NCBI GenBank assembly: GCA_028710685.1 | Contig: JAQTTQ010000006.1 | Coordinates: forward strand, 1 to 42,903 | Direction: 5' to 3' | DNA: 42,903 nt | Source: Candidatus Omnitrophota bacterium | GTDB lineage: Bacteria; Omnitrophota; Gorgyraeia; Gygaellales; Profunditerraquicolaceae | In this document: positions 2,624 through 19,811 of the stretch, piece after piece | How the letters are laid out: every line of letters starts with the position of its first letter | Numbering within the stretch: the first letter of the stretch is position 1 | Notes under the pieces: generated by a model | Database searches by the model: none | Told to the model about the DNA's origin: nothing | The model's input: the letters and a program-made list of their open reading frames with translations, nothing else | Program-made: the position numbers and the translations under genes

Positions 2624-2639
2624 AGTTTCAATGCCTCCT

Positions 2640-3095
2640 GCTAGCTACATACGCAAAGATTTGCAAAACTGACGGAAATATTTTCATTTTTTTTCGACCT
2701 CTACTAGCTACATACGACGTTTTTTGTAAAACTGCCGGAAATATTTTCACTTTCTTCACTACTTTCACTCCCCTAAGCGTATATTCCCCTTTTTCCCTAA
2801 AAGTGTCGGAACTTTCTGCCCCCTCATAGGTGATTACGCAAAATTTCGAAAAGTGTCGAAGCTTTTGGGCAACTTTTTTCTCCAAGGCGTATATACAACC
2901 TTTTTTGCCAAAGTGTCCCATCCTCACCGTAGTTATATGTATTCCGGGCCACAATTTCGCATCCCTCACATATGAACACGCAAAAAATTGAAAAGTGTAA
3001 CACCCCTTATGCCCTCCCATAGGTGATTACAGGAAAATTCCGAAAGTGTCGGGGCCTCACCTATGTACACGCAATATTTTTCAAAGTGTCGAACC
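2640..3095. repeat. Degenerate short-repeat array, iteron-like
   Basis: About eight units share a core ending in AAAGTGTCG (or the variant AAAACTGACGG) on the plus strand. The core is preceded 5-15 bases earlier by a TAGGTGATTACGC, GCGTATAT or CTATGTACACGC word. Core positions are near 2667, 2728, 2800, 2850, 2911, 2991, 3043 and 3082, so spacing is irregular (about 40-80 bases). Reading frames change between units, so a coding repeat is unlikely. The array lies upstream of the primase operon, as iterons would, but a related copy near 34.5 kb is not next to a replication gene. Confidence 0.65.
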
Positions 3096-4386: not shown

Positions 4387-5412
4387 TTAATTACATAAAT
4401 TTATATCACTAAATACCTGACACCCACCCCTGCACACCGAGAAATGCAAACAGGTTTTGCACTTTTCGGAAGCTATCTTATTCCGCATATTAAGAAATAT
4501 AGCGTTGTTTTGCCAAGCATTAACAATCGATGAGCACTTAAGATCAACGCCCTTGACTTTCCGCTCCATAAATGAACATGGATACAGTATTAAATCTTCA
4601 GAAATGAATGCAGAGAAACACCCAGCTTCACAAGCCTCAACCGAGACAGGATTGTACTCAAGATGCGTAACGATACCCGGAACACAACAACTATCAAAGC
4701 CAATTTTTATTTTGGAATTGCTAACCAGAGAAAAGAAAAAGTCAACCTCGGGAGACATCTTTAGCATATCTGAACAACTACCTTTACCAGCAGGTTTGAA
4801 TAATAAGAATATCAAAGCATTGATTCCTGTCATTTTCTTGGCATCAGCCGTCAGAAGCCTTATGGCAGATTCAATCGAATTAGCAGATAACACGAAATGA
4901 ATATTTGTTTTAACCCCGGAGTCTATTAATTTGTGAAGATTCAAATAAAATTGGTTCTCAGGTTCATAAAAACTGATCGCCACTGCTCCACAATGCTTTT
5001 TAGAAGCGAGAATGATATTTTCTGTTAAGCCGTCGCCATTCGTGGTATATGAAGGAACAATATTGTACTTATCGCGGGTTACCTCAAGAATCTTTTCAAA
5101 GCTTGAATGCTGATTCGGATTGCCGCCACCGAGAGCTATTTGTAAGACACCACAGTCCTTCGCCTGTCTTAAAATGTATTCATAATTAACAAATGACATC
5201 TCTTTCCCAGCTTTTGATGATGCCCTATAGCAAAAAGAACAGCTCCTTTCGCAATAGTTTGTTATCGATACATCAAGAAGCTCAGGGCCATGAGCTGAGT
5301 ATATTGGCTCTAATGAATTGCTATCTTCAACGCGCGCAAAAAACCCGGTATTTTGGTTAAAAATTACCGTATATTTTTCCTCGTCATATCTCTTAAGCAA
5401 TAAAGAGTTCAT
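4387..5412 (-). CDS. Radical SAM/SPASM enzyme
   Basis: A 341-residue radical SAM protein. The 4Fe-4S motif CERSCSFC gives Cys54, Cys58 and Cys61, followed by the glycine-rich ALGGGNP strand. The C-terminal third is SPASM-like with many cysteines: GCFSAF..LYPCSF, then CKTCLHFSVCRGGC. The N-terminal 35 residues (VIFNQNTGFFARVED) resemble the short peptide-recognition region seen before some RiPP maturases. SPASM enzymes usually modify peptide substrates. The gene starts 2 bases after the FVTNSSS protein stop, which makes that protein the obvious candidate substrate or partner. The enzyme chemistry cannot be predicted from sequence alone. Confidence 0.85.
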   Translation of the reverse strand: MNSLLLKRYDEEKYTVIFNQNTGFFARVEDSNSLEPIYSAHGPELLDVSITNYCERSCSFCYRASSKAGKEMSFVNYEYILRQAKDCGVLQIALGGGNPNQHSSFEKILEVTRDKYNIVPSYTTNGDGLTENIILASKKHCGAVAISFYEPENQFYLNLHKLIDSGVKTNIHFVLSANSIESAIRLLTADAKKMTGINALIFLLFKPAGKGSCSDMLKMSPEVDFFFSLVSNSKIKIGFDSCCVPGIVTHLEYNPVSVEACEAGCFSAFISEDLILYPCSFMERKVKGVDLKCSSIVNAWQNNAIFLNMRNKIASEKCKTCLHFSVCRGGCQVFSDINLCN

Positions 5413-5414: not shown

Positions 5415-5834
5415 TTACCAGCTTGAATTTGTAGCATCAATATAAATATTTTTACCTTCGATCTTAAAAGAGTCGCAACAAACAAATGTTTCTAACGCAT
5501 TTACCTCTGAAGATAATGTGCCAAAATACAAAGTATCGCCTTGTTCTTTAGCAAGCTTAATCTTTTCGACTAAGCCGGTAGAAAAAACATCAGCAATAAA
5601 AATATCCCATTGTCTGCCTTTGTTCCAGCGATGAGAAGCAACTGCCGCATCGAACGGCTCCATATTTGAAGCGAACATTTTAAATAAATCTAAAAACATG
5701 GGATAAACCGGAGATTTCTTATTGATGCCAACGCATTTCATGAATTGATCCTCTGTAAATTCCTGCCCCTTTTTCAGGACCACTACAAAGCATGTAGATG
5801 AGCTATTTGTAACAAAATCAAACTTAATTTTCAT
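5415..5834 (-). CDS. FVTNSSS-motif protein, possible radical SAM substrate
   Basis: A protein of about 139 residues that begins MKIKFDFVTNSSSTCFVVV. I recognise a K-x-x-FVTNSSS N terminus from a broad set of uncharacterised bacterial proteins; I know of no experimental role. The rest is a small mixed alpha/beta protein ending in YIDATNSSW, so a TNSS motif appears at both ends. The ATG at 5834 has AGGAG 6 bases upstream and overlaps the previous gene by 11 bases. A GTG one codon earlier is possible. Adjacent placement to a SPASM enzyme suggests it is modified or recognised by it. This is inference. Confidence 0.7.
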   Translation of the reverse strand: MKIKFDFVTNSSSTCFVVVLKKGQEFTEDQFMKCVGINKKSPVYPMFLDLFKMFASNMEPFDAAVASHRWNKGRQWDIFIADVFSTGLVEKIKLAKEQGDTLYFGTLSSEVNALETFVCCDSFKIEGKNIYIDATNSSW

Positions 5835-6243
5835 CACGCACTCCTAATACAGAATTTAATATATTCAAGGCGCCATCGGAACTCATGGTGAACATTTCTA
5901 AATTGTAATCTCCTGTAACGTGCTCTTTGCGCCACAGCAACACAGTATTCTTGTGTTTTAATAATTTTTTCGCTCCGGCTACCGACACATCGTCCGGAAG
6001 ACAATACTTTTTTTGAAGAAATTCACTAAACGAGCTGTATTCACGACTGTGATAATTTCTATACTCATCAAGCAAATCGACAGTTTCCGAGAAAAAACAG
6101 TCATAAACTCTGCTTAATAACCTGCCCGCAAAACTATTGCGCCCAACCCGCATTGTTCTTAAGAATCGCCCCTTGCTTATATTCTTTACGACATGAAAAA
6201 TATAGGCCTTGTTATGGTCTTTCTTGTATTCGTAATGAATCAT
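5824..6243 (-). CDS. Hypothetical protein, 139 aa, in NACHT-rSAM cassette
   Basis: A basic protein with no family I recognise. Visible features are a short N-terminal HYEYKKDHNKAYIFHV strand-rich segment, a basic stretch (RFLRTMRVGRNSFAGRLLSRV) and a C-terminal region with LWRKEHVTGDYNLEMFT. There are no membrane segments. The ATG shares one base with the TGA of the NACHT gene (TGATG), so translation is coupled. The TTG one codon earlier is a less likely start. Its fixed position between the NTPase and the FVTNSSS gene suggests a dedicated adaptor role, which is inference. Confidence 0.65.
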   Translation of the reverse strand: MIHYEYKKDHNKAYIFHVVKNISKGRFLRTMRVGRNSFAGRLLSRVYDCFFSETVDLLDEYRNYHSREYSSFSEFLQKKYCLPDDVSVAGAKKLLKHKNTVLLWRKEHVTGDYNLEMFTMSSDGALNILNSVLGVRDEN

Positions 6244-8474
6244 CAAACATCACCATGTATTAACTTGACTTCGTTTATCAAAGTATCGGCTCGATTTTTA
6301 TAATACTCATTGTTGCATTTCTGATATTTCTCGAATATCGCCAAGGCAGTCACTTGGTGCTCACTATATAATAAAGACAGTATATTTTTTGCCGTAGCGG
6401 AGCCGGTCTTTTCAGCAGATGCAATGAAAAACAAAAATTCTAAGGCAGGATTATTTACATCACCGGCTTTAATAATCTCATCTATATATTCAAAATAATG
6501 CTCCAAGGGTATCTCGTCATCTCTGCCGCCATAAGTGCTTAAATGTCTCTTAATCAAAAACGCCTCAAATTTCTCCTGGCGATCAACGTCTTGCATTGCG
6601 ACCAATAAAGAAAAAAGCATTGTAATATTTAAATTTTTGTATGTCTGCGGATCATAACGATAATAAATCAACATTCTTAGAATAAACTCGGCCTTTTCTT
6701 TAGAAGACAAATATTCTCTTTTTACCTGTTCGACATCTTGATCTGTTAGATCGGCGTCATTTGTTTCGAATAAATAATGAAGATATTTTTCTTTCCACCA
6801 TCCCGTTTTCGCTAATATTTGATCGAGTTTCTGCTTACTCCGGTCTTTTTTCGAAATAAAAAATAAATATTTACTGACCCCTTCGAACAAAGGTTTCTGT
6901 GGCAAAACCTCATCAGCGATAAATTGGGTGAATTTTTGTTCATCTTCGGGCAACAATATATTGGCCAAATAATCGGCGATCAGAAAGTCTCTGATTTCAT
7001 CAAATGTAAAGCTTATAACTTCCCCATCCAACAAAACTCCAGTTTTATCAACCACATCCCTTCTAAAGAAGATGTTTTCATCTATCAGCTTAAGTATCAC
7101 ATTTTTATCGATCGCGGTCTTGTCAATAACAACCTGCATTGGAACATCTTTGTGCAGCCTGGAATCAACCATGTGTTTTACGATTTCACGAATAACTTTC
7201 TGAATGGAATCATTCCCATTAGTTTTACCTTTGATTCCATCTCGAATCTGTCTATAGTATTCCTGAAAAAGGTCAAGCATGTAAACATTCAGAATTGAAC
7301 CGATGCTTCGTCCTTGATGCGCTTCGCAAAAAATACGCAATAACAAGAAATTACTGACCAGCTTCTCATAAACTCGCCCAGCAAAAGACTTCCATTCAAT
7401 TTCAAAAAACGAAAGATACTTTCGGAATAACTTATCCTTCTCATGCTCCTCAAGTTTTGAATTTATGCCCTTAATCTTTTGTATTTCTGAGGCAAACCAC
7501 GCTGTCTCGATACACTTATAATTTAAATCATAATATTCTGTTCTGCATGTCAGAATTATTCGGACAAACGGGTTTGAAAGCATATCTCCAATAAAAGCAT
7601 TCAATGCGTTGGGGAAATTTGCATCGCTCGATTCATTTAAAGCATCGATAATTACAATGAAATTTGTTTTTCTTCGCCCACATTCATGCTCAATGAATTT
7701 ATTTAAGGCATCAAAATCTGTTCCGCCGGTTATTCTTTCTGTGACAAAAGCTTTCATTGAGCTGTTATTCAGTCCGTAAAAATCACCCCCGTAGAATAAG
7801 GCAATAGGCACTTCCAACTTTAATAAAAATTCTTTTGCGAGGTCGCATATTAGGTTGGTTTTACCTTGCCCCGCATCATCTAACAGCACAAGAACTCGCG
7901 ACTTCAATACATTAAACTTTGCGATAGTCTCTTCCATTTTCCAGCGAGCTTGCCAAGGAAAATCATTGCTCTTTTCCGGCATGTTATTTAAAACAGCGGC
8001 GTTCCGTGTAATTGAAAGATTTAATTCTTTGAGTTTAGCTTTAAATGTTCTCAAAGAAGGGCGTGTAAGCTTCCGAAAAACCTTAAAAGCAATTTTTTGT
8101 TGAATCTCCTTGTCGAGGACTGAATTCGTATATGTAAAATCGCGCCTGTTAATATGGTCGATAAACTTATTACAGAACAGAAAAGGATGGCAAAAATATC
8201 TGAGCTCTTCCTTAACTTGATTGATTTCAATGTAGGAATCTGGCAAGTATTTCTTCGAATTGATTTGTTTCTGAATTTGATCCTGCGTAAATGACAATAA
8301 TCTCTTTTGAATGGCTATATTCTGCTTTCTACGCTTAAGGCACTCTCGAATATAATTAAACGGCCACTTAATAAGTCCCTTCAAAGAAGGCACCACAAGT
8401 AAAGCAATAACAATGCTGACCGCAATTGCGACGGCATTCTGCGAAACATATTGTTTTACCACTTGCCAATCCAT
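6243..8474 (-). CDS. Membrane-anchored NACHT/STAND NTPase
   Basis: A 743-residue protein with one hydrophobic helix at about residues 14-31, a basic cytoplasmic stretch (RECLKRRK), and a NACHT-type NTPase core. Walker A is DAGQGKTN at 200-207 and Walker B is FIVIIDALNE at 272-281, followed by a sensor-like RIILTCRTEYYD strand. The C-terminal 300 residues are helical, with a FDEIRDFLIADYL segment typical of NACHT proteins. STAND NTPases of this type include antiphage sensors such as AVAST proteins. The ATG at 8474 overlaps the stop of a 30-codon ORF; a TTG one codon earlier is possible. The N-terminal membrane helix suggests action at the inner membrane. Confidence 0.85.
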   Translation of the reverse strand: MDWQVVKQYVSQNAVAIAVSIVIALLVVPSLKGLIKWPFNYIRECLKRRKQNIAIQKRLLSFTQDQIQKQINSKKYLPDSYIEINQVKEELRYFCHPFLFCNKFIDHINRRDFTYTNSVLDKEIQQKIAFKVFRKLTRPSLRTFKAKLKELNLSITRNAAVLNNMPEKSNDFPWQARWKMEETIAKFNVLKSRVLVLLDDAGQGKTNLICDLAKEFLLKLEVPIALFYGGDFYGLNNSSMKAFVTERITGGTDFDALNKFIEHECGRRKTNFIVIIDALNESSDANFPNALNAFIGDMLSNPFVRIILTCRTEYYDLNYKCIETAWFASEIQKIKGINSKLEEHEKDKLFRKYLSFFEIEWKSFAGRVYEKLVSNFLLLRIFCEAHQGRSIGSILNVYMLDLFQEYYRQIRDGIKGKTNGNDSIQKVIREIVKHMVDSRLHKDVPMQVVIDKTAIDKNVILKLIDENIFFRRDVVDKTGVLLDGEVISFTFDEIRDFLIADYLANILLPEDEQKFTQFIADEVLPQKPLFEGVSKYLFFISKKDRSKQKLDQILAKTGWWKEKYLHYLFETNDADLTDQDVEQVKREYLSSKEKAEFILRMLIYYRYDPQTYKNLNITMLFSLLVAMQDVDRQEKFEAFLIKRHLSTYGGRDDEIPLEHYFEYIDEIIKAGDVNNPALEFLFFIASAEKTGSATAKNILSLLYSEHQVTALAIFEKYQKCNNEYYKNRADTLINEVKLIHGDV

Positions 8475-8566
8475 CAATAATACTCCCTAATATACCCATA
8501 CGCCCGGTCGAAAAGGTCTTGGTCGGTGTGGAGATTGTATTTAATTTCTTTTCTGCTTGAATTCAT
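8474..8566 (-). CDS. Tiny ORF, 30 aa, coupled to NACHT gene
   Basis: An ATG at 8566, 14 bases after the AbiJ-like stop, opens a 30-codon frame ending in a TGA that shares a base with the NACHT ATG. The peptide is charged and aromatic (KYNLHTDQDLFDRAYGYIREYY core). No strong ribosome site is visible. It may be a real small protein, a translational coupler, or the remnant of a larger gene. Confidence 0.35.
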   Translation of the reverse strand: MNSSRKEIKYNLHTDQDLFDRAYGYIREYY

Positions 8567-8580: not shown

Positions 8581-9429
8581 CTATTTCAACTTCTCAATTA
8601 AATCATTAACCGTTGCCTGCACAACAAGCCAGCTTATATTACAAGTGTCTTTGTCCGGATAACAATTTTGTAACATCTGTTGATGCGGATGAATGAAATT
8701 TCTAAAATCACGTAAAGAATGTGAATATTTCTTAATATCATAATCAATCCAGCCCACATCATGGGCAACATCGATCATTTCAACTAACTTCCATTCAGTG
8801 AAATCCTTGACTCTGCCACTTTTTTTATCGAAAGGGGCTGACTTCGCCGAGTTTGCTTCTTTCGGATTTCTCGACAGTACGGACAAAAATAACCCCTCCA
8901 GCATTGACCCCATCAGAATTGTCGCAGATAAATATGCACCATTGTTCACACAAATTTCGACCTCAGTCCATCGAACTGACAATACCTCTGATAGCTTACT
9001 CTCAATATTTAACTTCGAGAAATCGGGCTTAGGTAATGGCTGTAAATCCTTCACGTCTGAAATATCCACAAAGAAATCTGGCTCACACTGTTTAAATTGA
9101 GGCGTAATGCCTGAAAGTTCGACCTTCAAGCCCTCTAACGATAAAATATCGTTTAAGCATGCTATCGCCTTCGCCGTATTAGTCCTATCTGCTTTATATT
9201 CTTTCGGATTCGCTAAACGTAAAATAACAGCCTTAAGATTATTTTCTGATAAAGATTTTAACGTTTCTAATGTCCACCACTTACGGGTGGATCCATCGTG
9301 AGACAGATTAGCAAAACCGACCTTTTGGAAAAATCTTGTTAATTCCGAACCCGACCTATAAGCCGGAAACTTTTGCTGATCATCTCCGCAAATCATTTCA
9401 GCTAATAGTTCCATGGTTTGTCCATCCAT
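8581..9429 (-). CDS. AbiJ-like abortive infection protein with HEPN domain
   Basis: A 282-residue protein. The N-terminal 75 residues (RSGSELTRFFQKVGF...STRKWWTLETL) look like an AbiJ N-terminal domain. The middle has the LNDILSLEGLKVEL...G.TP pattern common in this family. The C-terminal helices carry SLRDFRNFIHP near residue 245, giving a HEPN-type R-x6-H motif. HEPN domains of abortive infection proteins are usually RNases that shut down infected cells. The ATG shares one base with the stop of the PD-(D/E)XK gene (TAATG). Family assignment is by recognition of pattern; the catalytic role is inferred. Confidence 0.7.
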   Translation of the reverse strand: MDGQTMELLAEMICGDDQQKFPAYRSGSELTRFFQKVGFANLSHDGSTRKWWTLETLKSLSENNLKAVILRLANPKEYKADRTNTAKAIACLNDILSLEGLKVELSGITPQFKQCEPDFFVDISDVKDLQPLPKPDFSKLNIESKLSEVLSVRWTEVEICVNNGAYLSATILMGSMLEGLFLSVLSRNPKEANSAKSAPFDKKSGRVKDFTEWKLVEMIDVAHDVGWIDYDIKKYSHSLRDFRNFIHPHQQMLQNCYPDKDTCNISWLVVQATVNDLIEKLK

Positions 9430-10934
9430 TATTTCACCTTTGAAGCTGATATTTTGTTGTCCTTGCGCGCGTCTATAAGAATCACATATTTTTCGTTAAC
9501 AAGGTCCAGTTCTTCTAATATCTTTTTAACCTTTGCCTCTTCGTCCAAAGAAAAGAAAATAATGACTTTTATCGCCTTGTCTGTATCATGGGCTTTTTTG
9601 TAGACTTCAACTTGATTTTCTAAGTTTTGTCTCAACTTTGAATTTGACGCCAACTTAAACTCGACCAGAGTTTTATCCTTGGCGCCTCGAGAAATTTTAA
9701 AATCAACCGGGCCACGGCCTTCATTGGCTTCACGGGTCACATCAGAAAAAGTTGCAAACCATGTCAGCCTATACATAATCTGGAGATCAGCCTCTTTACG
9801 AATAACATCATTTTTCCGGTAAAATATTCGATAGCCGTCTTTATTTTCAATAAAATCTTTCAAAAATAATACACGATCATAGCTTTCCGCAAGCGTATAT
9901 ATACCTTTATTGTAAAATTTAGTCTGCTGGGATAATCTTTCAATGAAATCGGATAGATCCGCTACAAACAAATTATGTATTTCTTCTACCTTTTCTTCAC
10001 TAATAGATCGCGCCTCATCGCCATGATCTTCCTTAAATTTTATATAGTGATCCAATAGCTCTGGATACTTACGAATAACAGCATTAACAGCTGTTACTAT
10101 GTCGTGCTTTTTCGGAACCTTTTCTTTCCCCTTCTTGGTATATTCTGGCTTTGGCAAATTTTGTGAAAAATAAAAATTTAACTCTGATCGCAATTGCTGG
10201 TTTGAAACAGATAATACTATATCGTCAAACCGATTAACTAAATCTGGGCGATTAATCCATGTATCATCTTTTGTTAATAAATCTTTTGGTGTAAGTAATA
10301 CATAATCTTTCTCGACATTAGAAACATTGATAAAAGGCAACAGAAACTTCCCGGAATTCCATGTCGATGTATTATAGTTAAAGGTGACATGCCTCACTGT
10401 AAATTCGTAAAGCAAGGATTTGTAAATATATTGTCTTGCGAAGCTCTGCGTATATTCAAGCAGATATCCTTTGATGAGATTTATGACAAAATCGCTAATA
10501 CTATCTCTGCCTGTATTTTCTTTAATGAGACAAAGCTTTTCCAGATGAGAACTCCGTGAGATTGTATTTCTGTCAAATCCAGAAAATATCCCGTTTAAAT
10601 TGTCATTCAATGCTCTCGCAAACTCTATCCCAGGCCCCCTTCCTCCATTGCCAACTTCACTGTAACCGAGCCATGTTTGCTTAACTTCAGGAAAACAATA
10701 CCAGCTTTTCAAAAGTCCATCGTTTATATTCTTAGCAATTGATTGATCTCTTAAAAAGGCAACATACCGCAAAATCGCGCTGTGCAAATTTTGATATTCT
10801 TGCTTCTCGCTATTAAACAAAAGAAATGGATCAACAAAAAGCGGAAGGTCATTTATAAGGGATATATTAAAAGCACCGTATTTTTCTATGACGTCTTGCC
10901 TTACATTAAAAAAATCCGAGAAATAAACATTCAT
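9429..10934 (-). CDS. PD-(D/E)XK nuclease-like protein in RM operon
   Basis: A 501-residue protein whose C-terminal 95 residues hold a PD-(D/E)XK nuclease signature: GPVDF with Asp411, then LVEFKLA with Glu425 and Lys427, and a following QVEVYKKA helix with the usual Gln. The first 400 residues are strand- and helix-rich, begin MNVYFSDFFNVRQDV, and match no family I can name. The start overlaps the hsdS stop by 4 bases (ATGA). Position directly after hsdS suggests an accessory restriction or defence nuclease. It could instead be the effector of the AbiJ/NACHT genes that follow. Confidence 0.7.
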   Translation of the reverse strand: MNVYFSDFFNVRQDVIEKYGAFNISLINDLPLFVDPFLLFNSEKQEYQNLHSAILRYVAFLRDQSIAKNINDGLLKSWYCFPEVKQTWLGYSEVGNGGRGPGIEFARALNDNLNGIFSGFDRNTISRSSHLEKLCLIKENTGRDSISDFVINLIKGYLLEYTQSFARQYIYKSLLYEFTVRHVTFNYNTSTWNSGKFLLPFINVSNVEKDYVLLTPKDLLTKDDTWINRPDLVNRFDDIVLSVSNQQLRSELNFYFSQNLPKPEYTKKGKEKVPKKHDIVTAVNAVIRKYPELLDHYIKFKEDHGDEARSISEEKVEEIHNLFVADLSDFIERLSQQTKFYNKGIYTLAESYDRVLFLKDFIENKDGYRIFYRKNDVIRKEADLQIMYRLTWFATFSDVTREANEGRGPVDFKISRGAKDKTLVEFKLASNSKLRQNLENQVEVYKKAHDTDKAIKVIIFFSLDEEAKVKKILEELDLVNEKYVILIDARKDNKISASKVK

Positions 10935-12037
10935 CCAAAGTACCTCTGCGTCAGGGCGTTGAACTGATTGTCCAGCTCATTTGTGCTTTTAAACAAGAAT
11001 TCTTTTGTATGGCTTATTAAATCTACAAGTTCAGAAAATCTTTTTTGTAGCTCTAAAGGTGGAACAGGAATATCAATTTTAGACAGTTGTCCCATGCTAA
11101 CTCTTGTTCTCGTCTGCCCATGTAAAAAATTAGATATGAAAGCTAAAGCGGAACTGGAGTTAAAAAAATGGCATAAGAATTCAGCCATAATAATTTTGCA
11201 CTGAGGTCTACATTGAACACAATCTGCTTTATTAACAGCCACGGCAATCTGCCGAGGTAGAATACATGCCCTAATATTTGGATTGCCCATTGTAGCGATT
11301 AATATGTCTCCCGGCAAACAAGTATGTTTCTTAATAGTTTTATAATGGCTCTCGGAAATGTAGGCTTTATCTTGATCTAAAAATTCCCCTAAGCCAATAT
11401 TTTGCAACCTCACAATCCTAACACCCGATTCTTTATAATGTTCCGTTTTAAGGTTAGAGCCAAATGGCCCATCACTAAATCTCTCACAAATATCGCGAAG
11501 ATTTTTCTTTGGCCAATTTTTGCTGTTCACATAGAGATCCCCAAACATATCCAAAAACGTAGCGCGGAGAAAGTCATCGAGAAGCTGAAGGGATTGTTTA
11601 CGCTTTTGACGAAGCGCGTCGGCTTGGTCAAGAATCTCCACAATCGTTTTTTGGCGATCAAAATCCTCTTTCGGCAATTCAATAGCGGAAATATAGCTCT
11701 TAGAGATGTGCTTGAGACCAGCTCCTTTAAAACCTCTCTCAAGGATGCGCATATTGCCCCTGAGGAAATAATAATAAAACTTTGCATGAGCTTTCTTCTT
11801 ATCGATCGGCTGTGCAACAAGACAATCTGTTGATACTGCAAACTTATTGTCAGTAAAATGAACGCTTGCGTTTCCCCCTGTTCCAAATATTAGCGCATCG
11901 CCATCAAACAAATACTCGTTAAGGAATTTTGTCTGCTCATCACTTGAGGTATAAAAGAAATACCGACCTTGTTCCAAACCGTCTCCGGCTTTTATTCCTG
12001 ATTTATTTTTAAATTCAAATACATCGGAAAACTTCAT
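10931..12037 (-). CDS. hsdS: Type I restriction specificity subunit HsdS
   Basis: A 368-residue specificity subunit that would select the DNA target for the HsdM/HsdR complex. It shows two target-recognition halves: residues about 1-125 (with GDALIFGTGGNASVHF) and about 165-345 (with ICERFSDGPFGSNLK and PGDILIATMGNP). Each is followed by a conserved helix (KTIVEILDQADALRQKRKQSL and RFSELVDLI). The first half lacks the usual opening helix, so it is slightly shorter than the common 400 residues. The ATG overlaps the hsdM TGA by one base. Confidence 0.9.
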   Translation of the reverse strand: MKFSDVFEFKNKSGIKAGDGLEQGRYFFYTSSDEQTKFLNEYLFDGDALIFGTGGNASVHFTDNKFAVSTDCLVAQPIDKKKAHAKFYYYFLRGNMRILERGFKGAGLKHISKSYISAIELPKEDFDRQKTIVEILDQADALRQKRKQSLQLLDDFLRATFLDMFGDLYVNSKNWPKKNLRDICERFSDGPFGSNLKTEHYKESGVRIVRLQNIGLGEFLDQDKAYISESHYKTIKKHTCLPGDILIATMGNPNIRACILPRQIAVAVNKADCVQCRPQCKIIMAEFLCHFFNSSSALAFISNFLHGQTRTRVSMGQLSKIDIPVPPLELQKRFSELVDLISHTKEFLFKSTNELDNQFNALTQRYFG

Positions 12038-13590
12038 CAGATTAACTCTCTCAATTTTTTTAGACCTGCGCCAATTTCTTCTTCAATCTTTTCTATCTTA
12101 TCCAGTATCTTCTCCGGCTTTTCATACTTTACTGGCTCATAGGCAATTTCCTTATAACGGTTGATGCTTAAGTCATAGTTGTTATCAATAATCTCTTTGA
12201 CCGGGACAAAGAAATGCTTCTCTTTTCGGTCATCGTTTTTGTTTTTACTGCGGGCCTTCCATTCTTTCGCGATGTCAGGCAAATCATTGGCGGCGATCTT
12301 TTCGCGCTTATCATCCAGCGAATATCCATCGGACTGCATGTCATAAAACCACACCTTTTGTGTTGTGCCGCCTTTGACAAAGATCAAAATGGCCGTACTT
12401 ACTCCTGCGTATGGCTTGAACACCCCGCTCGGCATGGACACGACACCTTGCAATTCGCACTTTTTAATCAGCATCTCACGCAGATCCCTATGCGCGCCGC
12501 TTGAACCAAAAAGAACGCCATCGGGCACGATTACTGCCGCACGGCCGCCGATGCGAAGAGAATTAATGATGCGGTTTACAAACAGAAGCTCGGTCTTGGT
12601 TGTCTTGAGCGAAAAGCCTTCGTTAATATCACCGGCGTCAATACTGCCCTTGAACGGTGGATTGGCAAGAATCACATCGTATTTATCGTCCTCGTTGAAA
12701 TTTTTGGAAAGCGTGTCCCGACGGTCAATATTCGGATTAGAAATCCCATGCAAAATAAGATTCATGAGGCCGATACGAACCATCGTTGAGTCAAAATCAT
12801 ACCCGAAGAAAGTCTTCTCCTTGAGCTGTTTCCACAGGCGCTCATCCGTGATCTTGTCTCCCAACGTTCCTCTTGTGAAGCCATTCTCATCTGTGAACAA
12901 CTGCTCTTTGCTTGTGTGCTGTGTCAGAATGTGTTGATACGCGCCCAACAGAAAACCTGCAGTGCCGCATGCCGGATCGCAAATCGATTCCGGTAATTTT
13001 GGCGCAACTAATTCGCACATAAGCTGAATAATATGGCGTGGCGTTCTGAACTGCCCGTTCTTGCCCGCCTGAGCGATTTCTCCTAACAAAAATTCGTACA
13101 TATCACCCTGAGTGTCATGAAACATCTGCCCAGCCTGCATCTGCTTCTCGATGTCTTCATATAAACGATCAATGATGCTCACCGCTTCAACAAGCAACGA
13201 TGCTTTTGGAATAATAAATACCGCGTCTTCCATGTGCCGGGCAAAGGCTGTATTGCTTCCATTAAGCTGTTTAATGAAGGGAAATATCTTAGTCTGCATG
13301 TGGCGAAGCATTTCTCCGCCTTCCATCTGTTTAAAATGGCTCCAGCGCAATGTTGCCTTATCAACGGTCTCATCTGAGTTTGGTATTTTGAACTTTCCAG
13401 AAAACATAGACACATATTTATCACCTGTAAACTCTGCGTCACTTTTTTGTTTGGTGTCGAGCTCATCCAGACGGCGCATGAATAGCAAATAGGAAATCTG
13501 TTCAATGGCGGTCAACGGATTAGAAATCCCTCCGCTCCAGAATTTGTCCCACAACTGATTAATCAACGACTTCATGTTTGGTGTTAACAT
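12037..13590 (-). CDS. hsdM: Type I restriction adenine methyltransferase HsdM
   Basis: A 517-residue N6-adenine methyltransferase. Residues 1-150 form the helical HsdM N-terminal domain (SNPLTAIEQISYLLFMRRLDE). The SAM-binding motif I DPACGTAGF is at 205-213 and the catalytic NPPF at 310-313. The C-terminal coiled region (DKIEKIEEEIG) probably binds HsdS. Length is normal. The start codon follows the hsdR stop by 2 bases, with GGGGA as ribosome site. All key residues are present, so the enzyme is expected to be active. Confidence 0.95.
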   Translation of the reverse strand: MLTPNMKSLINQLWDKFWSGGISNPLTAIEQISYLLFMRRLDELDTKQKSDAEFTGDKYVSMFSGKFKIPNSDETVDKATLRWSHFKQMEGGEMLRHMQTKIFPFIKQLNGSNTAFARHMEDAVFIIPKASLLVEAVSIIDRLYEDIEKQMQAGQMFHDTQGDMYEFLLGEIAQAGKNGQFRTPRHIIQLMCELVAPKLPESICDPACGTAGFLLGAYQHILTQHTSKEQLFTDENGFTRGTLGDKITDERLWKQLKEKTFFGYDFDSTMVRIGLMNLILHGISNPNIDRRDTLSKNFNEDDKYDVILANPPFKGSIDAGDINEGFSLKTTKTELLFVNRIINSLRIGGRAAVIVPDGVLFGSSGAHRDLREMLIKKCELQGVVSMPSGVFKPYAGVSTAILIFVKGGTTQKVWFYDMQSDGYSLDDKREKIAANDLPDIAKEWKARSKNKNDDRKEKHFFVPVKEIIDNNYDLSINRYKEIAYEPVKYEKPEKILDKIEKIEEEIGAGLKKLRELI

Positions 13591-13592
13591 TC

Positions 13593-16400
13593 TTATTCCC
13601 CTTTATCTGCGACCTTTAAAGTAAGGTCTACGATCTCTTCAATCTCGTTAGGCTTGAATATTCCCCGGATCCCTTGAGGATGGATCTGGGTAAACGGCGC
13701 ATTGACTAGGTCGCGTTTTTCAACGGCCCCCTTCTGCAAAATGAATGACTTTAGCGTTAGCAGAAACTGAATTTGAATCTGCCCATAGTTGTTATGCTTT
13801 CTAATAAATTCATCGAAGGCCAGAGATACGCTTTCTGTGAACGTTGCAAGGGTTTCAATTCCCAAAATATGCTTGATAAACTGAACAAAATGCGCACTCC
13901 GATTGTCGTAAATTTCACGGAGGATATATTCGGTCACATTCGGATAACGTTCCTCGAGGATCTTTGCCAGCTCTACAATTTCATCTTCCGACAAGTCCTG
14001 ACCTTGGGATAATTTCTGCAAAGCCGGATTGGTCCTGACCAAATCTCGGATAAACTCCTCGACCTTGAGCCGGTACTGATTGGTTGTTAATCGTTCGTGC
14101 TTTGGCCCGAACTCAATATAATCTTTCTGGACAAGCAAATCTTGCAAGTCAGTTGGTAACACCTCTCTCGTGCGTTTGGGCCCTCTAAATTTCATTAAAG
14201 GCCCAAGTGATTCAATTACCTCATCCAGATCGTCATCGGTAAATACCATCCAGAAATTCTCACCTGTGACTTTTCTGATCAGCTCTTCCTGCTCTGCGAC
14301 GATATTAACTTCTAAAGGCAACTCGGAAACCGTTTCAATGACGCCCTCTTTTAAGTTCTCAAACTTTTCATGGTCTTTAAGAATATGAGCAGTGCTTAAA
14401 TCAACAATATCCAGCTCAAAGTGCATTGCTTTAAAATCAGCTTCGGACTTTGCCCGCATGATAGGCGTGACATAAAGACGTAAGTATTTGAATTTATCAT
14501 CGTTCATGTGGAGCCAAAAACCCGGCTCAAGAACTTCATCCAGATACTTCTTGCCGTCTAAAACTATTACATTGTTCGATGGCAATTGCCGAATATCATT
14601 CATGATTTGTTTCTGTGTCTTTTCAGTAATCCCTGCGTTTTTGGTGCTTACTGCGGCCTCCAGTTTCTTTAACCGCGCTTCAAAAAGACGCACCGGTAAA
14701 GGCAGGCTTCCACCTGGTTCTTTGCCTTTTGGCTTCATTTTGAAGTATTCAAAATTCTTCCAGCAGTCCATTATCAAAAACTTTTCTTTCTGGGGACACC
14801 AAGGCTTAATCGCCTCAGGATCCAAGATCCTTGTTCCCCTGCCGATCATCTGCCAGAATTTCGTATACGACAGAACCGGCTTGGCAAATACCAGATTGAC
14901 TACCTCTCTGACGTCAATTCCGGTGTCCAGCATATCAACGCTAATTGCGATCCGAGGCATATCCTGATTTTTAAAACGATCAAGGATGCCACCCTTACCA
15001 TGTACACCTTTGACATCAGAAATAATCACCTCAGCTAATTGCCCTTTATATTCCGGATAGAGGGCGTTAAAGACTTCGCACAATCGGTATGCATGCTTCT
15101 TCGATATCGCGAAAACAATGGATTTCCCCGGCAAGACACCGTTTGGGTCTTTAATACACTCCTCCATAAACTCCCGAACAATGACCGCGTTAGTCCCTCT
15201 ATTGCTGACTTTCTTCTCGAGCTCTGTTCCCTCAAAATTGATTTCATCGGGATCTTGTCCATCAGCGAGTAGGCGTTTTTTGTCTGCCTCAGCAATCGTT
15301 GTGCTATTGATCCCTTCCTGCTGGAACTTGGTTTGAATACCAAAAACCTCAAAGTCACTTAAATACGGAGGGACATTATTAACCGCCTCTTCATAAGTGT
15401 AAGCGTATGTCGGCAAGCCTTCGTCACACTCAAAAAGCCCGAAGGTATTATGATCAATGTGATCCTTAGGTGTTGCGGTCAGCCCAAGTTGAAGAGCATC
15501 AAAATAATCCAAAATGTTTTTATAGACGTTATAGATTGAACGGTGGCTTTCATCGGCAATGAGAAGGTCAAAGAAATGGGGCGTAAAGGGGCAATCTTCT
15601 TGCTGAATCAAGTTCAGCATCGTTGGGTAAGTCATCACGTAGACGCGTCTATCAAGAACAAACTCGCGCTCCCCCTCCTTGGGCCAAATAGGGGCATTAG
15701 GCAAATGTTCTTTAAAAGCATCCAGAGCCTGTTCCTGTAAAGCAATTCTATCGACCAGAAAAAGAACACGCTGGGCATGATTTGTGCGCGCAAGAACATC
15801 CACTATCCCCATACATGTGCGCGTCTTACCTGTGCCTGTAGCCATAACCATCAAAAATTTACGGCGTCTTTTTTCAATTGCTTCCAGAACAGCGCGGATG
15901 CCTTCGATTTGATATGGGCGTCCGGAAATCCTTGTGTCCACCAATTGACTGGAAAGCGGCTTGCTATTGTCACGCAGAAACTGCATTCGCTCGAGGTCTG
16001 ATCTGGAAGGATAGCCTAAAATCTTCCGCGGAGGAAAGCGCTCGGTATCCCAGAAATAAAGATCATAACCATTCGTATAAAATACAAATGGCATCGGGGC
16101 ACCTGTTGTTTCGTGAATTTTTTGGGCGTAATTACGCGCTTGTTCTTTTCCAATCTCAGCATCAACAGTTGTCTTTTTGGCCTCAACAACTGCCAACGGT
16201 TTGCCATCTTTGCCAAGCAAAACGTAATCAGCAAATATGTGCCCTTGATAAGGCGTCTGAGGTTCGGCAACCCCCGCAGGAAGTCCAACCCATATATCCA
16301 ATTCTTCGGTTACATGAAGCGGATTCTTGACTTCCCAGCCAGACAGTTTCAACCGCTGGTTAATGATGAATTGCCTCGTTTGTGCTTCGCTTTTTGTCAT
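13593..16400 (-). CDS. hsdR: Type I restriction endonuclease subunit HsdR
   Basis: A 935-residue ATP-dependent translocase-nuclease of the EcoEI-like kind. The nuclease site is Asp58 with Glu73-x-Lys75 (VVEAK). Helicase motif I is ATGTGKT at about 187-193 and motif II is DESH at 283-286. A C-terminal helicase lobe carries QMIGRGTR, and a long helical end would bind the methyltransferase. The ATG overlaps the radC stop by 4 bases, an arrangement that puts restriction under the same promoter as radC. No frameshift or lost motif is seen. Confidence 0.95.
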   Translation of the reverse strand: MTKSEAQTRQFIINQRLKLSGWEVKNPLHVTEELDIWVGLPAGVAEPQTPYQGHIFADYVLLGKDGKPLAVVEAKKTTVDAEIGKEQARNYAQKIHETTGAPMPFVFYTNGYDLYFWDTERFPPRKILGYPSRSDLERMQFLRDNSKPLSSQLVDTRISGRPYQIEGIRAVLEAIEKRRRKFLMVMATGTGKTRTCMGIVDVLARTNHAQRVLFLVDRIALQEQALDAFKEHLPNAPIWPKEGEREFVLDRRVYVMTYPTMLNLIQQEDCPFTPHFFDLLIADESHRSIYNVYKNILDYFDALQLGLTATPKDHIDHNTFGLFECDEGLPTYAYTYEEAVNNVPPYLSDFEVFGIQTKFQQEGINSTTIAEADKKRLLADGQDPDEINFEGTELEKKVSNRGTNAVIVREFMEECIKDPNGVLPGKSIVFAISKKHAYRLCEVFNALYPEYKGQLAEVIISDVKGVHGKGGILDRFKNQDMPRIAISVDMLDTGIDVREVVNLVFAKPVLSYTKFWQMIGRGTRILDPEAIKPWCPQKEKFLIMDCWKNFEYFKMKPKGKEPGGSLPLPVRLFEARLKKLEAAVSTKNAGITEKTQKQIMNDIRQLPSNNVIVLDGKKYLDEVLEPGFWLHMNDDKFKYLRLYVTPIMRAKSEADFKAMHFELDIVDLSTAHILKDHEKFENLKEGVIETVSELPLEVNIVAEQEELIRKVTGENFWMVFTDDDLDEVIESLGPLMKFRGPKRTREVLPTDLQDLLVQKDYIEFGPKHERLTTNQYRLKVEEFIRDLVRTNPALQKLSQGQDLSEDEIVELAKILEERYPNVTEYILREIYDNRSAHFVQFIKHILGIETLATFTESVSLAFDEFIRKHNNYGQIQIQFLLTLKSFILQKGAVEKRDLVNAPFTQIHPQGIRGIFKPNEIEEIVDLTLKVADKGE

Positions 16401-17104
16401 AGTAACCCTGCTAGCCCTTCGTCTGCGAAACTGTAATATTGGTTATCTCCGACAATGACATGATCAATGACCTTGATCTGCATCAACTTTCCCGCATCGC
16501 TCAACTCTTTGGTGAACTGCTTATCCTGCGTGCTTGGCGTTATGTTAGCGCTGGGATGGTTATGAACACAAACAATCGACTTGGCGAACTTCTGCAATGC
16601 GGCGTGGATTATTTCACGGACAATCGGGAATGCCTGATCAACAGTGCCAACGGCAGTATCCACGATGTCGATAATACGGTTATTGCTATCAAGATAAACG
16701 ACCTTAAAAACCTCTGTCTTAAGGTCGCGGAGCTGGGGCATGACGATATCCACAACGTCCTTGGCAGAGGCGATCTTCTGCTTCCCGGTGGACACATCGT
16801 CCTGTCGATAGCGCCGCCCGATTTCAAGCGCGGCCTGAATATGAGCGATCTTGGCCCCGCCCAAGCCCTTGAGATCTTTCCAGTCCCGGGCGTCGGTATG
16901 GGCCATGTTACGAAATGTGCCAAATTTCTTGAGTATCTTGCGGGCGAGATCGATTGCGCTCGTGCCCTGCGTGCCGGTGCGAAGAAGAATGGCCAGAAGC
17001 TCCGAATTACTCAAAGCCCCCGCACCCTTTTTGAGGAGTTTCTCTCTCGGCCTGTCATCCGCAGGCCAAGTCTTTATGCCTGATATTTTTCTTTCCTTCA
17101 CCAT
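16397..17104 (-). CDS. radC: RadC-family JAB/MPN protein
   Basis: A 235-residue protein with an N-terminal helix-hairpin-helix part (LSNSELLAILLRTGT...LKGLGGAKIAHIQAALE) and a JAB1/MPN metalloprotease-like domain with HNHPS followed by an Asp (TPSTQD). Length is typical. RadC proteins are common in defence islands and mobile elements; the original link to DNA repair is not supported and the substrate is unknown. Here it is the first gene of the restriction operon, coupled to hsdR by an ATGA overlap. Confidence 0.9.
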   Translation of the reverse strand: MVKERKISGIKTWPADDRPREKLLKKGAGALSNSELLAILLRTGTQGTSAIDLARKILKKFGTFRNMAHTDARDWKDLKGLGGAKIAHIQAALEIGRRYRQDDVSTGKQKIASAKDVVDIVMPQLRDLKTEVFKVVYLDSNNRIIDIVDTAVGTVDQAFPIVREIIHAALQKFAKSIVCVHNHPSANITPSTQDKQFTKELSDAGKLMQIKVIDHVIVGDNQYYSFADEGLAGLL

Positions 17105-17400
17105 TCTTCTCTTCTCTGTTCTTCACTTAAAATACTGAGCCCATTGTGAGCCATTAATGAGCCAATTGAGCCATTTATGAGCCAACCGCCCCTTTTGCCC
17201 CATTACCGCATCTATGTCCCGTTTGTCCCCTTTGTGTCCCCTTAGGCTAATCGCGCACTAATCGCGCAATGTCCGATATGTCCGATAAATGTCCGAAACC
17301 TGTCCCAAATGTTCCATATCTTTGTGGACATTTTTAGAGACATTTCCCGGTTTTTAGGGACATTTCTTTTAGAGACATTTTTAGGGACATTTTTCACTTT
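17105..17400. repeat. Cluster of four short-word repeat families
   Basis: On the minus strand the spacer reads, in order: five copies of AATGTCCCTAAA or AATGTCTCTAAA; three CGGACAT words; two GCGCGATTAG copies 11 bases apart; three GGGACA words; and five GGCTCA words (TTGGCTCATTAATGGCTCA type). The first copy encodes the last residues (ENVPKK) of the upstream gene. No clean promoter for radC could be picked out inside these repeats, and no terminator hairpin is visible. Confidence 0.7.
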
Positions 17401-18890
17401 TTAGGGACATTCTCTGTTGCACAGAAATAAGCCCCTTTCTTATACCCAACCTTTCTCACCAAACCACTTTCAGTCAACTGTTTTAAATCTCTCAAGGCAG
17501 TCTTTTTAACGATATCCTTAAATAATTCTAGGTATGCCGCAATCGTCATTTGCTTTTTCTCGTTAACCATCAACCGGAGGGCTTCAATCTGGCGTTCATT
17601 CAAACCAAGCTTTTTAAGATCAGTCTGTCTATGCTCAGGAATGCTTGGCGCAAGATCCAAAATCTTATCCCCGGGACCATAAAATTTAACGACAAAGAAA
17701 TCCCCTTCCTCCGAGAACTCCGGGGCTGAAAGGCCATGCTCTTTCATAAGTTTCTTCATCTTTTCTATACCAGTACCAAAGCGCTCCATATCTAAAGTTT
17801 CATGAAAGATGCCACAGATGGCCTTATTGCGTGTCGCATGAGTGCCTTCCAGCTTCTTAATATTTAGACCGGGTAAAAGACCGCCGGGATTGCGAACCTC
17901 CACGCGATCATCAAAAACAGCTACCATAATTGGCGCACCTTGACGGTTGTAGTTACGATGAGCTATTGCATTAATGACCGCTTCACGAATAGCCTCGAAA
18001 GGGTATTCAGGAATATCTACCCGTTTAAACTCGACGATCTTGTTCGCCAAGCGAGTATTCCGCACGAAAAATGCTTGCACCTGAGCAAGCATTTTATAAA
18101 TAGGCCCTTTGATCTCTTGCGAATCTATAAACTCTGAACGCGTTGTCCCTTTGAATCGGGCAATACGAATCTCATGGTTTGTGATGATGTCGGAAGGATT
18201 TTTACCGAAGAATAGAATTCCTGTATTCGTAGGCCAAAGCCCGCCATCTTCTTTTTTAACAACTTTAAGGACGTTGGTCAGGATATCCTTGATTGATGTC
18301 TTAGGAACTTTAACATTAAGCTTGGTAGCGCGATTCTGCAGAAAATCTTTCACGCACTGCTCGTCGATTGCTTCATAGCCCACTTCACGAGGGATCGCCT
18401 CATCAAAAGGCCCTTTACTAACTTCGCCTTTATCATCCAAAAATGAAATCAAACTATTGAGAACTTGAACCTTTAAGTCATCAACATTGCGGAATCGTTT
18501 GTATATAAATACAGCTTTTATGGATTTAAAGAAGGTCTGCTCATCCTTATCCCGCTTTGCGTCATCTCCGGACGCTCCCTTTACAAAAACAAGAATTTCT
18601 CCGCGCGGGCATTCTTTTTGAAACTTCCTGAATTCTCGCTCTGTCGCCGAGAAGCCATCTTTGCCTTTGTCTCCATAATCCTTACCAAGAATCCCAAGAT
18701 AAATATCGCTGTCGCAAACATGCTTCAAGTATGTCGCCGCGGGCGACTTACCCTTTGCGGGAAGATCCTCAAAAAGGAATACATCAAAGCACTGCCGCAA
18801 AGTCGAGTTACCGTTGATCAAATCCTTGATCGCGAACCTCTCCTCACGAAGCTCTTTTTGATTAGCACTAACAAATAGTTTGTATTTCAT
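17394..18890 (-). CDS. DUF4062 + AlbA/RecG-like ATP-binding protein
   Basis: A 498-residue protein. Residues 1-150 look like DUF4062 (KLFVSANQKELREER..FLFEDLPAKGKSP..YLGILGKDYG), a domain found in signalling and immune-type proteins. Residues about 195-410 match the AlbA_2/RecG-like regulators with a C-terminal ATPase fold (YPFEAIREAVINAIAHRNY and DRVEVRNPGGL). A winged helix closes the protein (KKTALRDLKQLTESGLVRK). It is probably a DNA- or ligand-sensing regulator. The C-terminal ENVPKK lies in the repeat cluster, where NVPK-like words continue past the stop in another frame. The start is 1 base from the stop of the Xre regulator. Confidence 0.8.
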   Translation of the reverse strand: MKYKLFVSANQKELREERFAIKDLINGNSTLRQCFDVFLFEDLPAKGKSPAATYLKHVCDSDIYLGILGKDYGDKGKDGFSATEREFRKFQKECPRGEILVFVKGASGDDAKRDKDEQTFFKSIKAVFIYKRFRNVDDLKVQVLNSLISFLDDKGEVSKGPFDEAIPREVGYEAIDEQCVKDFLQNRATKLNVKVPKTSIKDILTNVLKVVKKEDGGLWPTNTGILFFGKNPSDIITNHEIRIARFKGTTRSEFIDSQEIKGPIYKMLAQVQAFFVRNTRLANKIVEFKRVDIPEYPFEAIREAVINAIAHRNYNRQGAPIMVAVFDDRVEVRNPGGLLPGLNIKKLEGTHATRNKAICGIFHETLDMERFGTGIEKMKKLMKEHGLSAPEFSEEGDFFVVKFYGPGDKILDLAPSIPEHRQTDLKKLGLNERQIEALRLMVNEKKQMTIAAYLELFKDIVKKTALRDLKQLTESGLVRKVGYKKGAYFCATENVPKK

Positions 18891-18891
18891 C

Positions 18892-19104
18892 TTACTTGAC
18901 CTCTTTTGTGCTCTTAGCCGAAAATGTTATTTTCTTTTTGGTTAAATACTTCTCGACGTGATACTGCTGAATCTTACTGGGAACGGTCTTGCCGTTAAAC
19001 CAGCGGCTCACGGTCGAAAAAGCAACGCCCAGCTCTTTAGCTAAATCCTGCTGAGTAATCTTGTTTTCAAGACGGTACAGTTCTAATTTTTTTATCATAT
19101 CCAT
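18892..19104 (-). CDS. Xre-type helix-turn-helix regulator
   Basis: About 70 residues from the ATG at 19104, chosen because AGGAG lies 8 bases upstream; a longer frame exists but lacks such a site. The helix-turn-helix is KITQQDLAKELGVAFSTVSR followed by WFNGKTVPS. It is cotranscribed with the DUF4062 gene from the promoter at 19159-19187 and probably controls that promoter. The C-terminal KYLTKKKITFSAKS tail is basic. It acts in the cytoplasm as a DNA-binding dimer by family knowledge. Confidence 0.8.
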   Translation of the reverse strand: MDMIKKLELYRLENKITQQDLAKELGVAFSTVSRWFNGKTVPSKIQQYHVEKYLTKKKITFSAKSTKEVK

Positions 19105-19158
19105 ATGCCTAGCTCCTGTGGTTAGCATAGTCATTTTTCCCTTTTGCGCATATTGCAT

Positions 19159-19187
19159 CTTATAGCACAGAATTAATTAAAAGTCAA
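19159..19187 (-). promoter_or_regulatory. Sigma70-type promoter of the Xre-DUF4062 pair
   Basis: On the minus strand TTGACT (19182-19187) and TATAAG (19159-19164) are separated by exactly 17 bases, with a TGC extended -10. Transcription would begin about 40-50 bases before the Xre start codon. Confidence 0.75.
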
Positions 19188-19273
19188 TGTGAAACTACCG
19201 ATAAAAACCGTGAGGGTTAACAAGACTGCCCTATGAAATAGGACAATTGATCTATGGAATAGAACAGGCGGGA

Positions 19274-19546
19274 TTACAGGACGGATTCTTGAAACTTGCC
19301 GGTCGTTGCATCCACAATCCGGAAATGGGTCTTGCCAATGCGATCCTTCCACTGCTCCTCGATATTCAGGCTCCAGTCCCCCAGTGGCATAACTTTCTGG
19401 ATCTCCCGCAGGCGAAGTTTACCGGCCGGGACCGCGCCCAAAAGATCGCCCTCGGTTGAGATGTTTTCCACGTAAACTTCCTCGCCAGCCAGCCGGACGC
19501 TGATGTAGCGGGTTTTCTTAACAGCTTGCTCAATAATCTTTGCCAT
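19274..19546 (-). CDS. Duplicated 90-aa protein, copy A
   Basis: A 90-residue soluble protein with no family I recognise. It reads as a small beta-rich fold (RYISVRLAGEEVYVENIS, then LRLREIQKVMPLGDWSLNIEEQWK). The ribosome site GGGAGGTAGG precedes the ATG. A second copy at 30039-30311 differs at only about ten residues. The homology runs on for roughly 180 bases upstream and includes the dyad at 19697-19728, so gene and control region were duplicated together. DNA or RNA binding is possible but not shown. Confidence 0.75.
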   Translation of the reverse strand: MAKIIEQAVKKTRYISVRLAGEEVYVENISTEGDLLGAVPAGKLRLREIQKVMPLGDWSLNIEEQWKDRIGKTHFRIVDATTGKFQESVL

Positions 19547-19696
19547 GCGCCTACCTCCCTTTTGGGGTCAAGTAGGCCATAGGGTTGAGCGGTTGGCAAG
19601 AAATTAATTGGGGTTACGAGCCTACCCCTCTTATATCAATTATCTGCCATAACTTGATTTAATACAAATAGTTGCAAACAGTTCACGAAGGCTATT

Positions 19697-19728: not shown

Positions 19729-19740
19729 GATCTTGAGGCC

Positions 19741-19766: not shown

Positions 19767-19811
19767 ACACTTGGCAGGTTTATTACATTTCTTGTAACAT
19801 TTGCGCAGATT

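What the first reader, a model, noticed from the sequence alone, without database searches (positions are those of the whole stretch)
5415..5834. FVTNSSS signature followed by a second TNSS near the C terminus
The protein opens with FDFVTNSSSTCF and ends with DATNSSW. A conserved N-terminal Ser/Thr/Asn/Cys block next to a peptide-modifying SPASM enzyme looks like a core or recognition site. If so, a protein of about 139 residues rather than a short RiPP precursor would be the substrate.
Basis: partly seen in the sequence, partly recalled or inferred. Interest (0 to 1): 0.55.

Follow-up and report, generated by a model that had tools for sequence, protein, structure and literature searches.

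The report
Shared N-terminal tag for radical enzymes
Dozens of otherwise unrelated bacterial and phage proteins begin with the same short peptide, and almost wherever this tag occurs a gene for one family of radical-SAM enzyme occurs too, so the tag is probably where that enzyme binds and chemically modifies the protein, which appears not to have been described before.

Summary
The ORF is real (minus strand, 139 aa) and begins MKIKFDFVTNSSSTCF. It lies in a four-gene operon: STAND NTPase, untagged paralogue, tagged protein, radical SAM/SPASM enzyme. Searching with the enzyme alone gave 67 relatives from many phyla; the gene just upstream encodes the tagged protein in 64, and the other three are cut at contig edges. 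In 299 Bacillota genomes all 9 tag hits lie beside such an enzyme, on four different protein bodies. Large phages carry arrays of tagged proteins plus the enzyme; RB43/KP15-like lab phages carry two tagged proteins and a distant enzyme. Without their first 20 residues, 345 tagged proteins fall into 48 sequence clusters; intact, they form one. Conservation concentrates in residues 1-17, and AlphaFold gives residues 1-9 mostly pLDDT below 50. The C-terminal "TNSS" is not conserved. Best reading: the tag is the enzyme's docking and probably modification site, the substrate is a whole folded protein, here in a defence-like STAND operon. Modification and its chemistry are not shown. No description was found in the open-access papers searched.

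The parts
5415..5834 (-). Tagged protein P0001 (139 aa, ATG at 5834, stop 5417-5415), proposed substrate
   Evidence: family of 74 homologues; AlphaFold2 mean pLDDT 90.9
5787..5834 (-). N-terminal tag, residues 1-16 MKIKFDFVTNSSSTCF: proposed docking and modification site
   Evidence: strongest conserved stretch, residues 1-4 and 6-9 pLDDT <50, shared by 48 body clusters
4387..5412 (-). Radical SAM/SPASM enzyme (341 aa), proposed tag-modifying enzyme
   Evidence: CX3CX2C at residues 54-61 and SPASM cysteines invariant in 5 homologues
5824..6246 (-). ORF2 (140 aa): untagged paralogue of the tagged protein
   Evidence: profile-profile match to the tagged family 98.1%, E 1.2e-13 over 110 columns; same order of helices and strands in its model
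6243..8477 (-). STAND NTPase (744 aa) with an N-terminal hydrophobic segment (residues 14-32)
   Evidence: Avs2 model 74.8 bits; Walker A AGQGKTN, NE of the Walker B region and FTFDExRDF in the family; hydrophobic segment

Best explanation
The block M-K-[IVL]-[KR]-x-D-[FY]-[VI]-[TS]-N-S-S-S-x-x-[FY] at the very N-terminus is a transplantable substrate tag for one family of radical SAM/SPASM enzymes. The enzyme docks on the flexible tag and alters one or more residues of its T/S-N-S-S-S core, while the rest of the protein, a folded domain of any kind, is the cargo. In the window the cargo is a small domain that also exists as an untagged paralogue next door; the two work with a STAND NTPase with exchangeable N-terminal effector domains, most likely in anti-phage defence. 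Large phages use the same tag and enzyme for whole sets of their own small proteins. Shown by sequence: tag, pairing with the enzyme, independence of tag and body, flexibility in the model, SPASM architecture, STAND architecture. Inferred: that the enzyme acts on the tag, which residues change, what the change is, and the defence role.
For: Search by enzyme only: tagged protein directly upstream in 64 of 67 genome loci and 5 of 5 viral loci; of the 3 misses, 2 keep its body cut at a contig edge and 1 starts inside the enzyme. The same 7 of 72,556 plasmid records hold both genes. In 299 Bacillota genomes all 9 tag hits lie beside an enzyme of the family, with 4 kinds of body; none of the other 290 genomes has the enzyme at E<=1e-40. 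Viral contigs: separate scans by tag and by enzyme share 18 contigs, expected 0.002; 21 of 30 tag contigs hold the enzyme, 12 of 13 of those >=100 kb, plus 2 of 2; 56 of 80 viral enzyme loci hold a tagged protein nearby, one of them doubtful. Isolated phages: enzyme in 172, tagged proteins in 175 and 174 of 50,697 records, nearly the same genus make-up. A second tag form (DVITNSSTEIF) also lies with a diverged enzyme, in 6 of 9 loci. Tag codons vary freely, e.g. both kinds of Ser codon, so the peptide is what is kept. Flexible tag. Closest solved enzymes are the peptide maturases SuiB and SkfB. STAND N-termini include SMEK in 16, trypsin in 7 and a TIR in 1 of 49 members.
Against: No modification has been seen; everything is sequence. 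24 of 80 viral enzyme loci lack the strict tag and their contigs do too; most are short pieces and 2 hold the variant tag, but G949 (437 kb) has a distant enzyme and no tag was found. 9 of 30 tag contigs show no enzyme, one of 203 kb. In phages the enzyme is often not adjacent (adjacent in 30 of 80). The enzyme alignment A5 contains rows from 7 of the 9 Bacillota genomes, so the enzyme hits there are partly built in. Class III enzymes have a longer spacing of the cluster cysteines. The tag could be a docking site with the chemistry elsewhere, e.g. at C119 or W139.
Confidence: 0.78

Rival explanations
1. The tag only docks the protein to the enzyme: the tagged protein is an accessory subunit or carrier, and the enzyme acts on something else, such as a nucleotide (viperin-like) or another protein.
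For: Weak similarity of the enzyme to prokaryotic viperin models (PADLOC 38 bits; NCBIfam 32.1 bits against a cut-off of 180). The tag includes residues (K2, K/R4, D6) that look like recognition.
Against: The enzyme carries a SPASM domain and its nearest solved relatives are peptide maturases. One enzyme with up to 6 or 7 differently bodied tagged proteins in a phage is odd for an accessory subunit. The best conserved core is T/S-N-S-S-S, rich in modifiable residues.
Confidence: 0.14
2. The motif is simply the first strand and turn of a common fold, kept for folding.
For: From residue 13 the tag runs into strand 1 of the model.
Against: Residues 1-4 and 6-9 have pLDDT below 50; the ORF2 paralogue keeps the fold without the tag; bodies behind the tag fall into 48 clusters, some of about 470-500 aa.
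Confidence: 0.04
3. The tag serves another recognition event (localisation, degradation, packaging) and the radical SAM gene is only a frequent neighbour.
For: In large phages enzyme and tagged genes are often apart.
Against: Co-occurrence in plasmids, genomes, metagenomic and isolated phages, over different cargoes and gene orders (upstream or downstream of the enzyme).
Confidence: 0.04

Closest known systems
FxSxx peptides with radical SAM/SPASM enzyme in VMAP ternary conflict systems (PMC7159879, passages seen)
   Same: A radical SAM/SPASM enzyme next to a motif-bearing polypeptide inside an NTPase-based conflict system
   Different: There the partner is described as a peptide processed by a peptidase, in vWA/MoxR/VMAP systems; here a 130-140 aa folded protein with an N-terminal T-N-S-S-S tag, a STAND NTPase and an untagged paralogue, and the same tag on unrelated bodies and in phages
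SuiB (PDB 5v1q) and SkfB (6efn), radical SAM/SPASM peptide maturases
   Same: Nearest solved sequences to the enzyme family (E 4.8e-12 and 3.8e-9)
   Different: Only remote similarity; those act on short precursors (function of SuiB recalled), here the candidate substrates are whole proteins
Avs2 STAND NTPases (PADLOC)
   Same: Window NTPase matches the Avs2 core (8.7e-22); N-terminal domains are exchanged between relatives
   Different: Shorter than the 1375-1576-position Avs2 models (744 aa here, mostly 711-1077 in relatives), and accompanied by the tagged protein, its paralogue and the radical SAM enzyme
SMEK nuclease partners of short prokaryotic Argonautes (PMC10810196, abstract seen)
   Same: SMEK domain in 16 of 49 STAND relatives
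   Different: No Argonaute gene is annotated in the four plasmid loci; the window's own NTPase has no SMEK match
phrog_7397 (unknown function)
   Same: Its first 24 positions match the tag of a phage protein weakly (E 0.0056)
   Different: An uncharacterised family; the call gives no description of a tag

Membership tests
Radical SAM/SPASM enzymes | CX3CX2C cluster motif | tested here: met
   C54, C58, C61 invariant in 5 class I enzymes; class III members have a longer spacing
Radical SAM/SPASM enzymes | C-terminal SPASM cysteine domain | tested here: met
   TIGR04085 30.7 bits, cut-off 27; C261, C279, C318, C321, C327, C331 invariant in 11 enzymes of several classes
RiPP precursor peptides | Short precursor with N-terminal leader and C-terminal core | tested here: not met
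   139 aa with a folded body behind the conserved N-terminal block; other tagged proteins reach about 470-500 aa
RiPP precursor peptides | Enzymatic modification followed by proteolytic release | not testable with these tools
   needs mass spectrometry
RiPP recognition element (RRE) | RRE domain fused to or beside the enzyme | not tested
   about 50 residues precede the cluster motif; no RRE search was made
FxSxx / VMAP systems | FxSxx motif in a peptide partner | tested here: not met
   the conserved block is N-terminal DF[VI][TS]NSSS
Avs-type STAND defence systems | STAND NTPase core | tested here: met
   invariant Walker A, NE and D/R residues of FTFDExRDF in 49 members; Avs2 match
Avs-type STAND defence systems | Exchangeable N-terminal effector domain | tested here: met
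   SMEK in 16, trypsin in 7, TIR, phosphorylase and esterase-like in 1 each of 49
Avs-type STAND defence systems | Protection against phage | not testable with these tools
   needs plaque assays
Prokaryotic viperins | NCBIfam viperin model at its cut-off | tested here: not met
   NF038283 32.1 bits against a cut-off of 180

The most novel reading that the evidence does not exclude
Bacteria, at least one archaeal bin and many tailed phages share a general, tag-directed protein modification: a radical SAM/SPASM enzyme recognises and alters a short N-terminal T/S-N-S-S-S tag on any cargo. Bacteria use it to arm the sensor of a STAND immune system; phages use it on sets of their own small proteins, possibly to imitate or saturate that sensor.
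Probability: 0.45. Interest if true: 0.95.

Novelty: new variant of a known kind. Interest (0 to 1): 0.85.

Why it matters
Radical SAM/SPASM enzymes are known mostly from short peptides or single dedicated proteins (recalled). A tag that can be moved between unrelated proteins would be a new, portable way to install radical chemistry on protein N-termini, and would give a function to a large set of unnamed phage genes. It is directly testable: E. coli phage Lw1 carries two tagged proteins and the enzyme. It also adds a radical enzyme and a tagged/untagged protein pair to STAND-type defence.

Tried and rejected
Rejected: a role for the C-terminal TNSS; the motif as a mere structural strand; membership of the viperins. 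Led nowhere: Pfam and NCBIfam for the tagged protein; Foldseek against PDB and BFVD gave no match at E<=0.001 and the VIA second look only Z<=4.1, which shows neither that the fold is new nor that it is known; paper searches for the tag letters and for radical SAM with STAND, SMEK, huge phages or RB43-type phages (listings and starts of abstracts seen, passages of three papers) found no description of this pairing. That is limited to open-access full texts. The neighbourhood of the enzyme in two enterobacterial phages at first suggested no tagged protein; it turned up about 20 kb away in the same phage group.

Rows dropped before counts: class I set 74 sequences reduced to 57 below 80% identity; enzyme tree 161 reduced to 81; 343 of 345 proteins were long enough for body clustering; 30 of 70 tag-bearing viral contigs were tested for the enzyme, mostly chosen by length. 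Tag residues N10-T14 were part of the regular expression, and parts of the core, so their invariance there is partly by construction; one search was looser. Centres of the Bacillota and Bacteroidota samples were genomes known to have the system. In the Bacteroidota sample the looser pattern hit 20 of 296 genomes, of which only the centre showed a real N-terminal tag. Labels class I, II and III are mine.

Full report
What is there. The finding lies on the minus strand. The ORF at 5834-5415 encodes 139 residues, MKIKFDFVTNSSSTCF...DATNSSW. It is the third of four tightly packed genes: a STAND NTPase (8477-6243), a 140-aa protein called ORF2 here (6246-5824), the finding's protein, and a 341-aa radical SAM/SPASM enzyme (5412-4387). 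No Pfam or NCBIfam family matches the tagged protein or ORF2 convincingly. The window's contig belongs to a 1.24 Mb, 84-contig genome; the strict DNA pattern for the tag occurs in 1 of 285 genomes of the phylum, the own genome.

Pairing with the enzyme in cells. Relatives of the tagged protein on plasmids lie in the same gene order, and a search with the enzyme returns the same 7 of 72,556 plasmid records. A scan of genome contigs with the enzyme alignment alone gave 67 relatives in bacteria of many phyla and in one bin labelled Micrarchaeota. A tagged protein lies directly upstream in 64 of these 67 and in 5 of 5 viral relatives. The three others: L012 and L045 keep the body of the same protein, cut or disrupted at the contig edge, and L061 starts inside the enzyme. 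NTPase, small protein, tagged protein and enzyme recur in that order; by script, ORF2 was called in 71 and the NTPase in 69 of 73 loci with a tagged protein, though a few of these calls, e.g. ORF2 in L053, are wrong frames.

Different bodies, same tag. In 299 Bacillota genomes the pattern hit 9 (the reversed control hit 6). All 9 hits are N-terminal and lie beside an enzyme of this family, but only one has the window's kind of body. Three have another body of about 140 aa. Four have bodies of about 470-500 aa, and one a 276-aa body, lying downstream of a diverged enzyme. With an alignment of the enzymes, the same 9 genomes and no others of the 299 score at E<=1e-40; rows of that alignment come from 7 of these genomes, so the informative part is the absence elsewhere. 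In 296 Bacteroidota genomes only the centre genome has either.

Phages. A search with the tagged protein found only its N-terminus in two large phage contigs, on several proteins each; both contigs encode the enzyme elsewhere, E about 1e-90. Of 30 tested contigs 21 hold the enzyme, 12 of 13 of those of 100 kb or more. A separate scan by the enzyme gave 80 loci, 56 of them with a tagged protein on the piece, one doubtful; the other 24 and the doubtful one have no strict tag on the whole contig, though L301 and L306 carry a variant, D-[VI]-I-T-N-S-S-T-E-I-[FY]. The two scans share 18 contigs where 0.002 are expected by chance. A search for the variant gave 9 pieces, 6 with a diverged enzyme on the same piece.

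Isolated phages. Enterobacterial phages related to RB43 and KP15 hold a distant enzyme (172 of 50,697 records, about 27% identity) and two tagged proteins, MKIRSGFVSNSSSSSF (175 and 174 records), with nearly the same genus make-up. I compared counts, not full accession lists, and read both enzyme and tags in RB43 and Lw1.

Tag and body are separate modules. 345 tagged proteins form one BLASTP cluster when intact and 48 when the first 20 residues are removed; single linkage at E 1e-3, so remote kinship between bodies is not excluded. ORF2 of the window operon is the same fold without the tag: profile match 98.1%, E 1.2e-13, and the same order of the main helices and strands in its AlphaFold model. 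In L057 a second tagged copy lies in the ORF2 position.

Conservation and structure. In 57 non-redundant class I proteins residues 1-17 average 3.34 bits and the rest 1.75. C119 and the terminal W139 are also conserved; the C-terminal TNSS is not. In AlphaFold2 with 52 sequences the body is confident (mean over the chain 90.9), while residues 1-4 and 6-9 fall below 50; strand 1 starts at residue 13. Tag residue 14 is Thr in 69 of 69 cellular class I proteins, mixed in 187 phage proteins with Lys at position 4, and Ser in 66 of 72 with Arg there. The enzyme tree puts class I in one clade (37 rows, support 95) with classes II and III in their own.

The enzyme and the operon. The family keeps CX3CX2C (longer spacing in class III) and SPASM cysteines, and is nearest, among solved structures, to SuiB and SkfB. 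The NTPases share STAND motifs. Their N-termini or other parts match SMEK in 16, trypsin in 7, and TIR, phosphorylase or esterase-like domains in single members of 49; the window's has a hydrophobic segment. The window lies among type I restriction genes. This is the anatomy of a defence system in which an exchangeable effector is controlled by a STAND core; the tagged protein and its untagged paralogue may be sensor parts. That role is inference.

How it most likely works. The enzyme docks on the flexible N-terminus and changes residues in T/S-N-S-S-S. Evidence is by association, but it holds over genomes, plasmids, metagenomic and isolated phages, over many cargoes, and over two tag forms. 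The chemistry is open: oxidation of a Ser or Thr, or a link from an aromatic residue (F7 or F16) to a neighbour, are both possible; the variant tag lacks F7, so a link from F7 could not be general.

Known or new. The closest description I saw is of FxSxx peptides with radical SAM/SPASM enzymes in VMAP ternary conflict systems (PMC7159879, passages). The idea of a radical SAM enzyme with a partner in an NTPase system is therefore known; the N-terminal tag on unrelated folded proteins, the STAND operon with an untagged paralogue, and the phage arrays were not found in the papers searched.

Noticed in passing
L308:6844-9060; L309:3756-5975: In RB43/KP15-like phages a protein of about 740 aa with a von Willebrand A domain (for L308) lies between the two tagged genes; vWA proteins are also part of the conflict systems of PMC7159879.
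   Followed up: partly
L312-L319: Arrays with a second tag form, HSxIDVITNSSTEIF, up to four per piece, with a more diverged enzyme.
   Followed up: partly
L097-L100: Bacillota tagged proteins of about 470-500 aa with a hydrophobic stretch and a coiled-coil-like body, downstream of an enzyme whose cluster cysteines are spaced more widely.
   Followed up: partly
L309:26837-27859: The RB43 copy of the enzyme ends differently from Lw1 and lacks the last SPASM cysteines as annotated; Lw1 is the better test phage.
   Followed up: partly
window 2638-3091: Degenerate direct repeats (five copies of 45 nt, two of 56 nt) beside a primase/helicase gene with NrS-1 polymerase and D5 domains (195-2390): possibly the replication origin of a mobile element.
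   Followed up: no
window 9429-27243: Defence-like neighbours: DpnII/MboI-like nuclease (weak), type I restriction genes, RadC, RhuM-Fic fusion, a transposase.
   Followed up: partly
L053, L057: Two Deltaproteobacterial bins have several tagged paralogues before the enzyme; no NTPase was called upstream of them.
   Followed up: no
PMC12390700 (passage): An Aeromonas giant phage is reported with eight radical SAM genes among its structural genes; whether it has tagged proteins was not checked.
   Followed up: no
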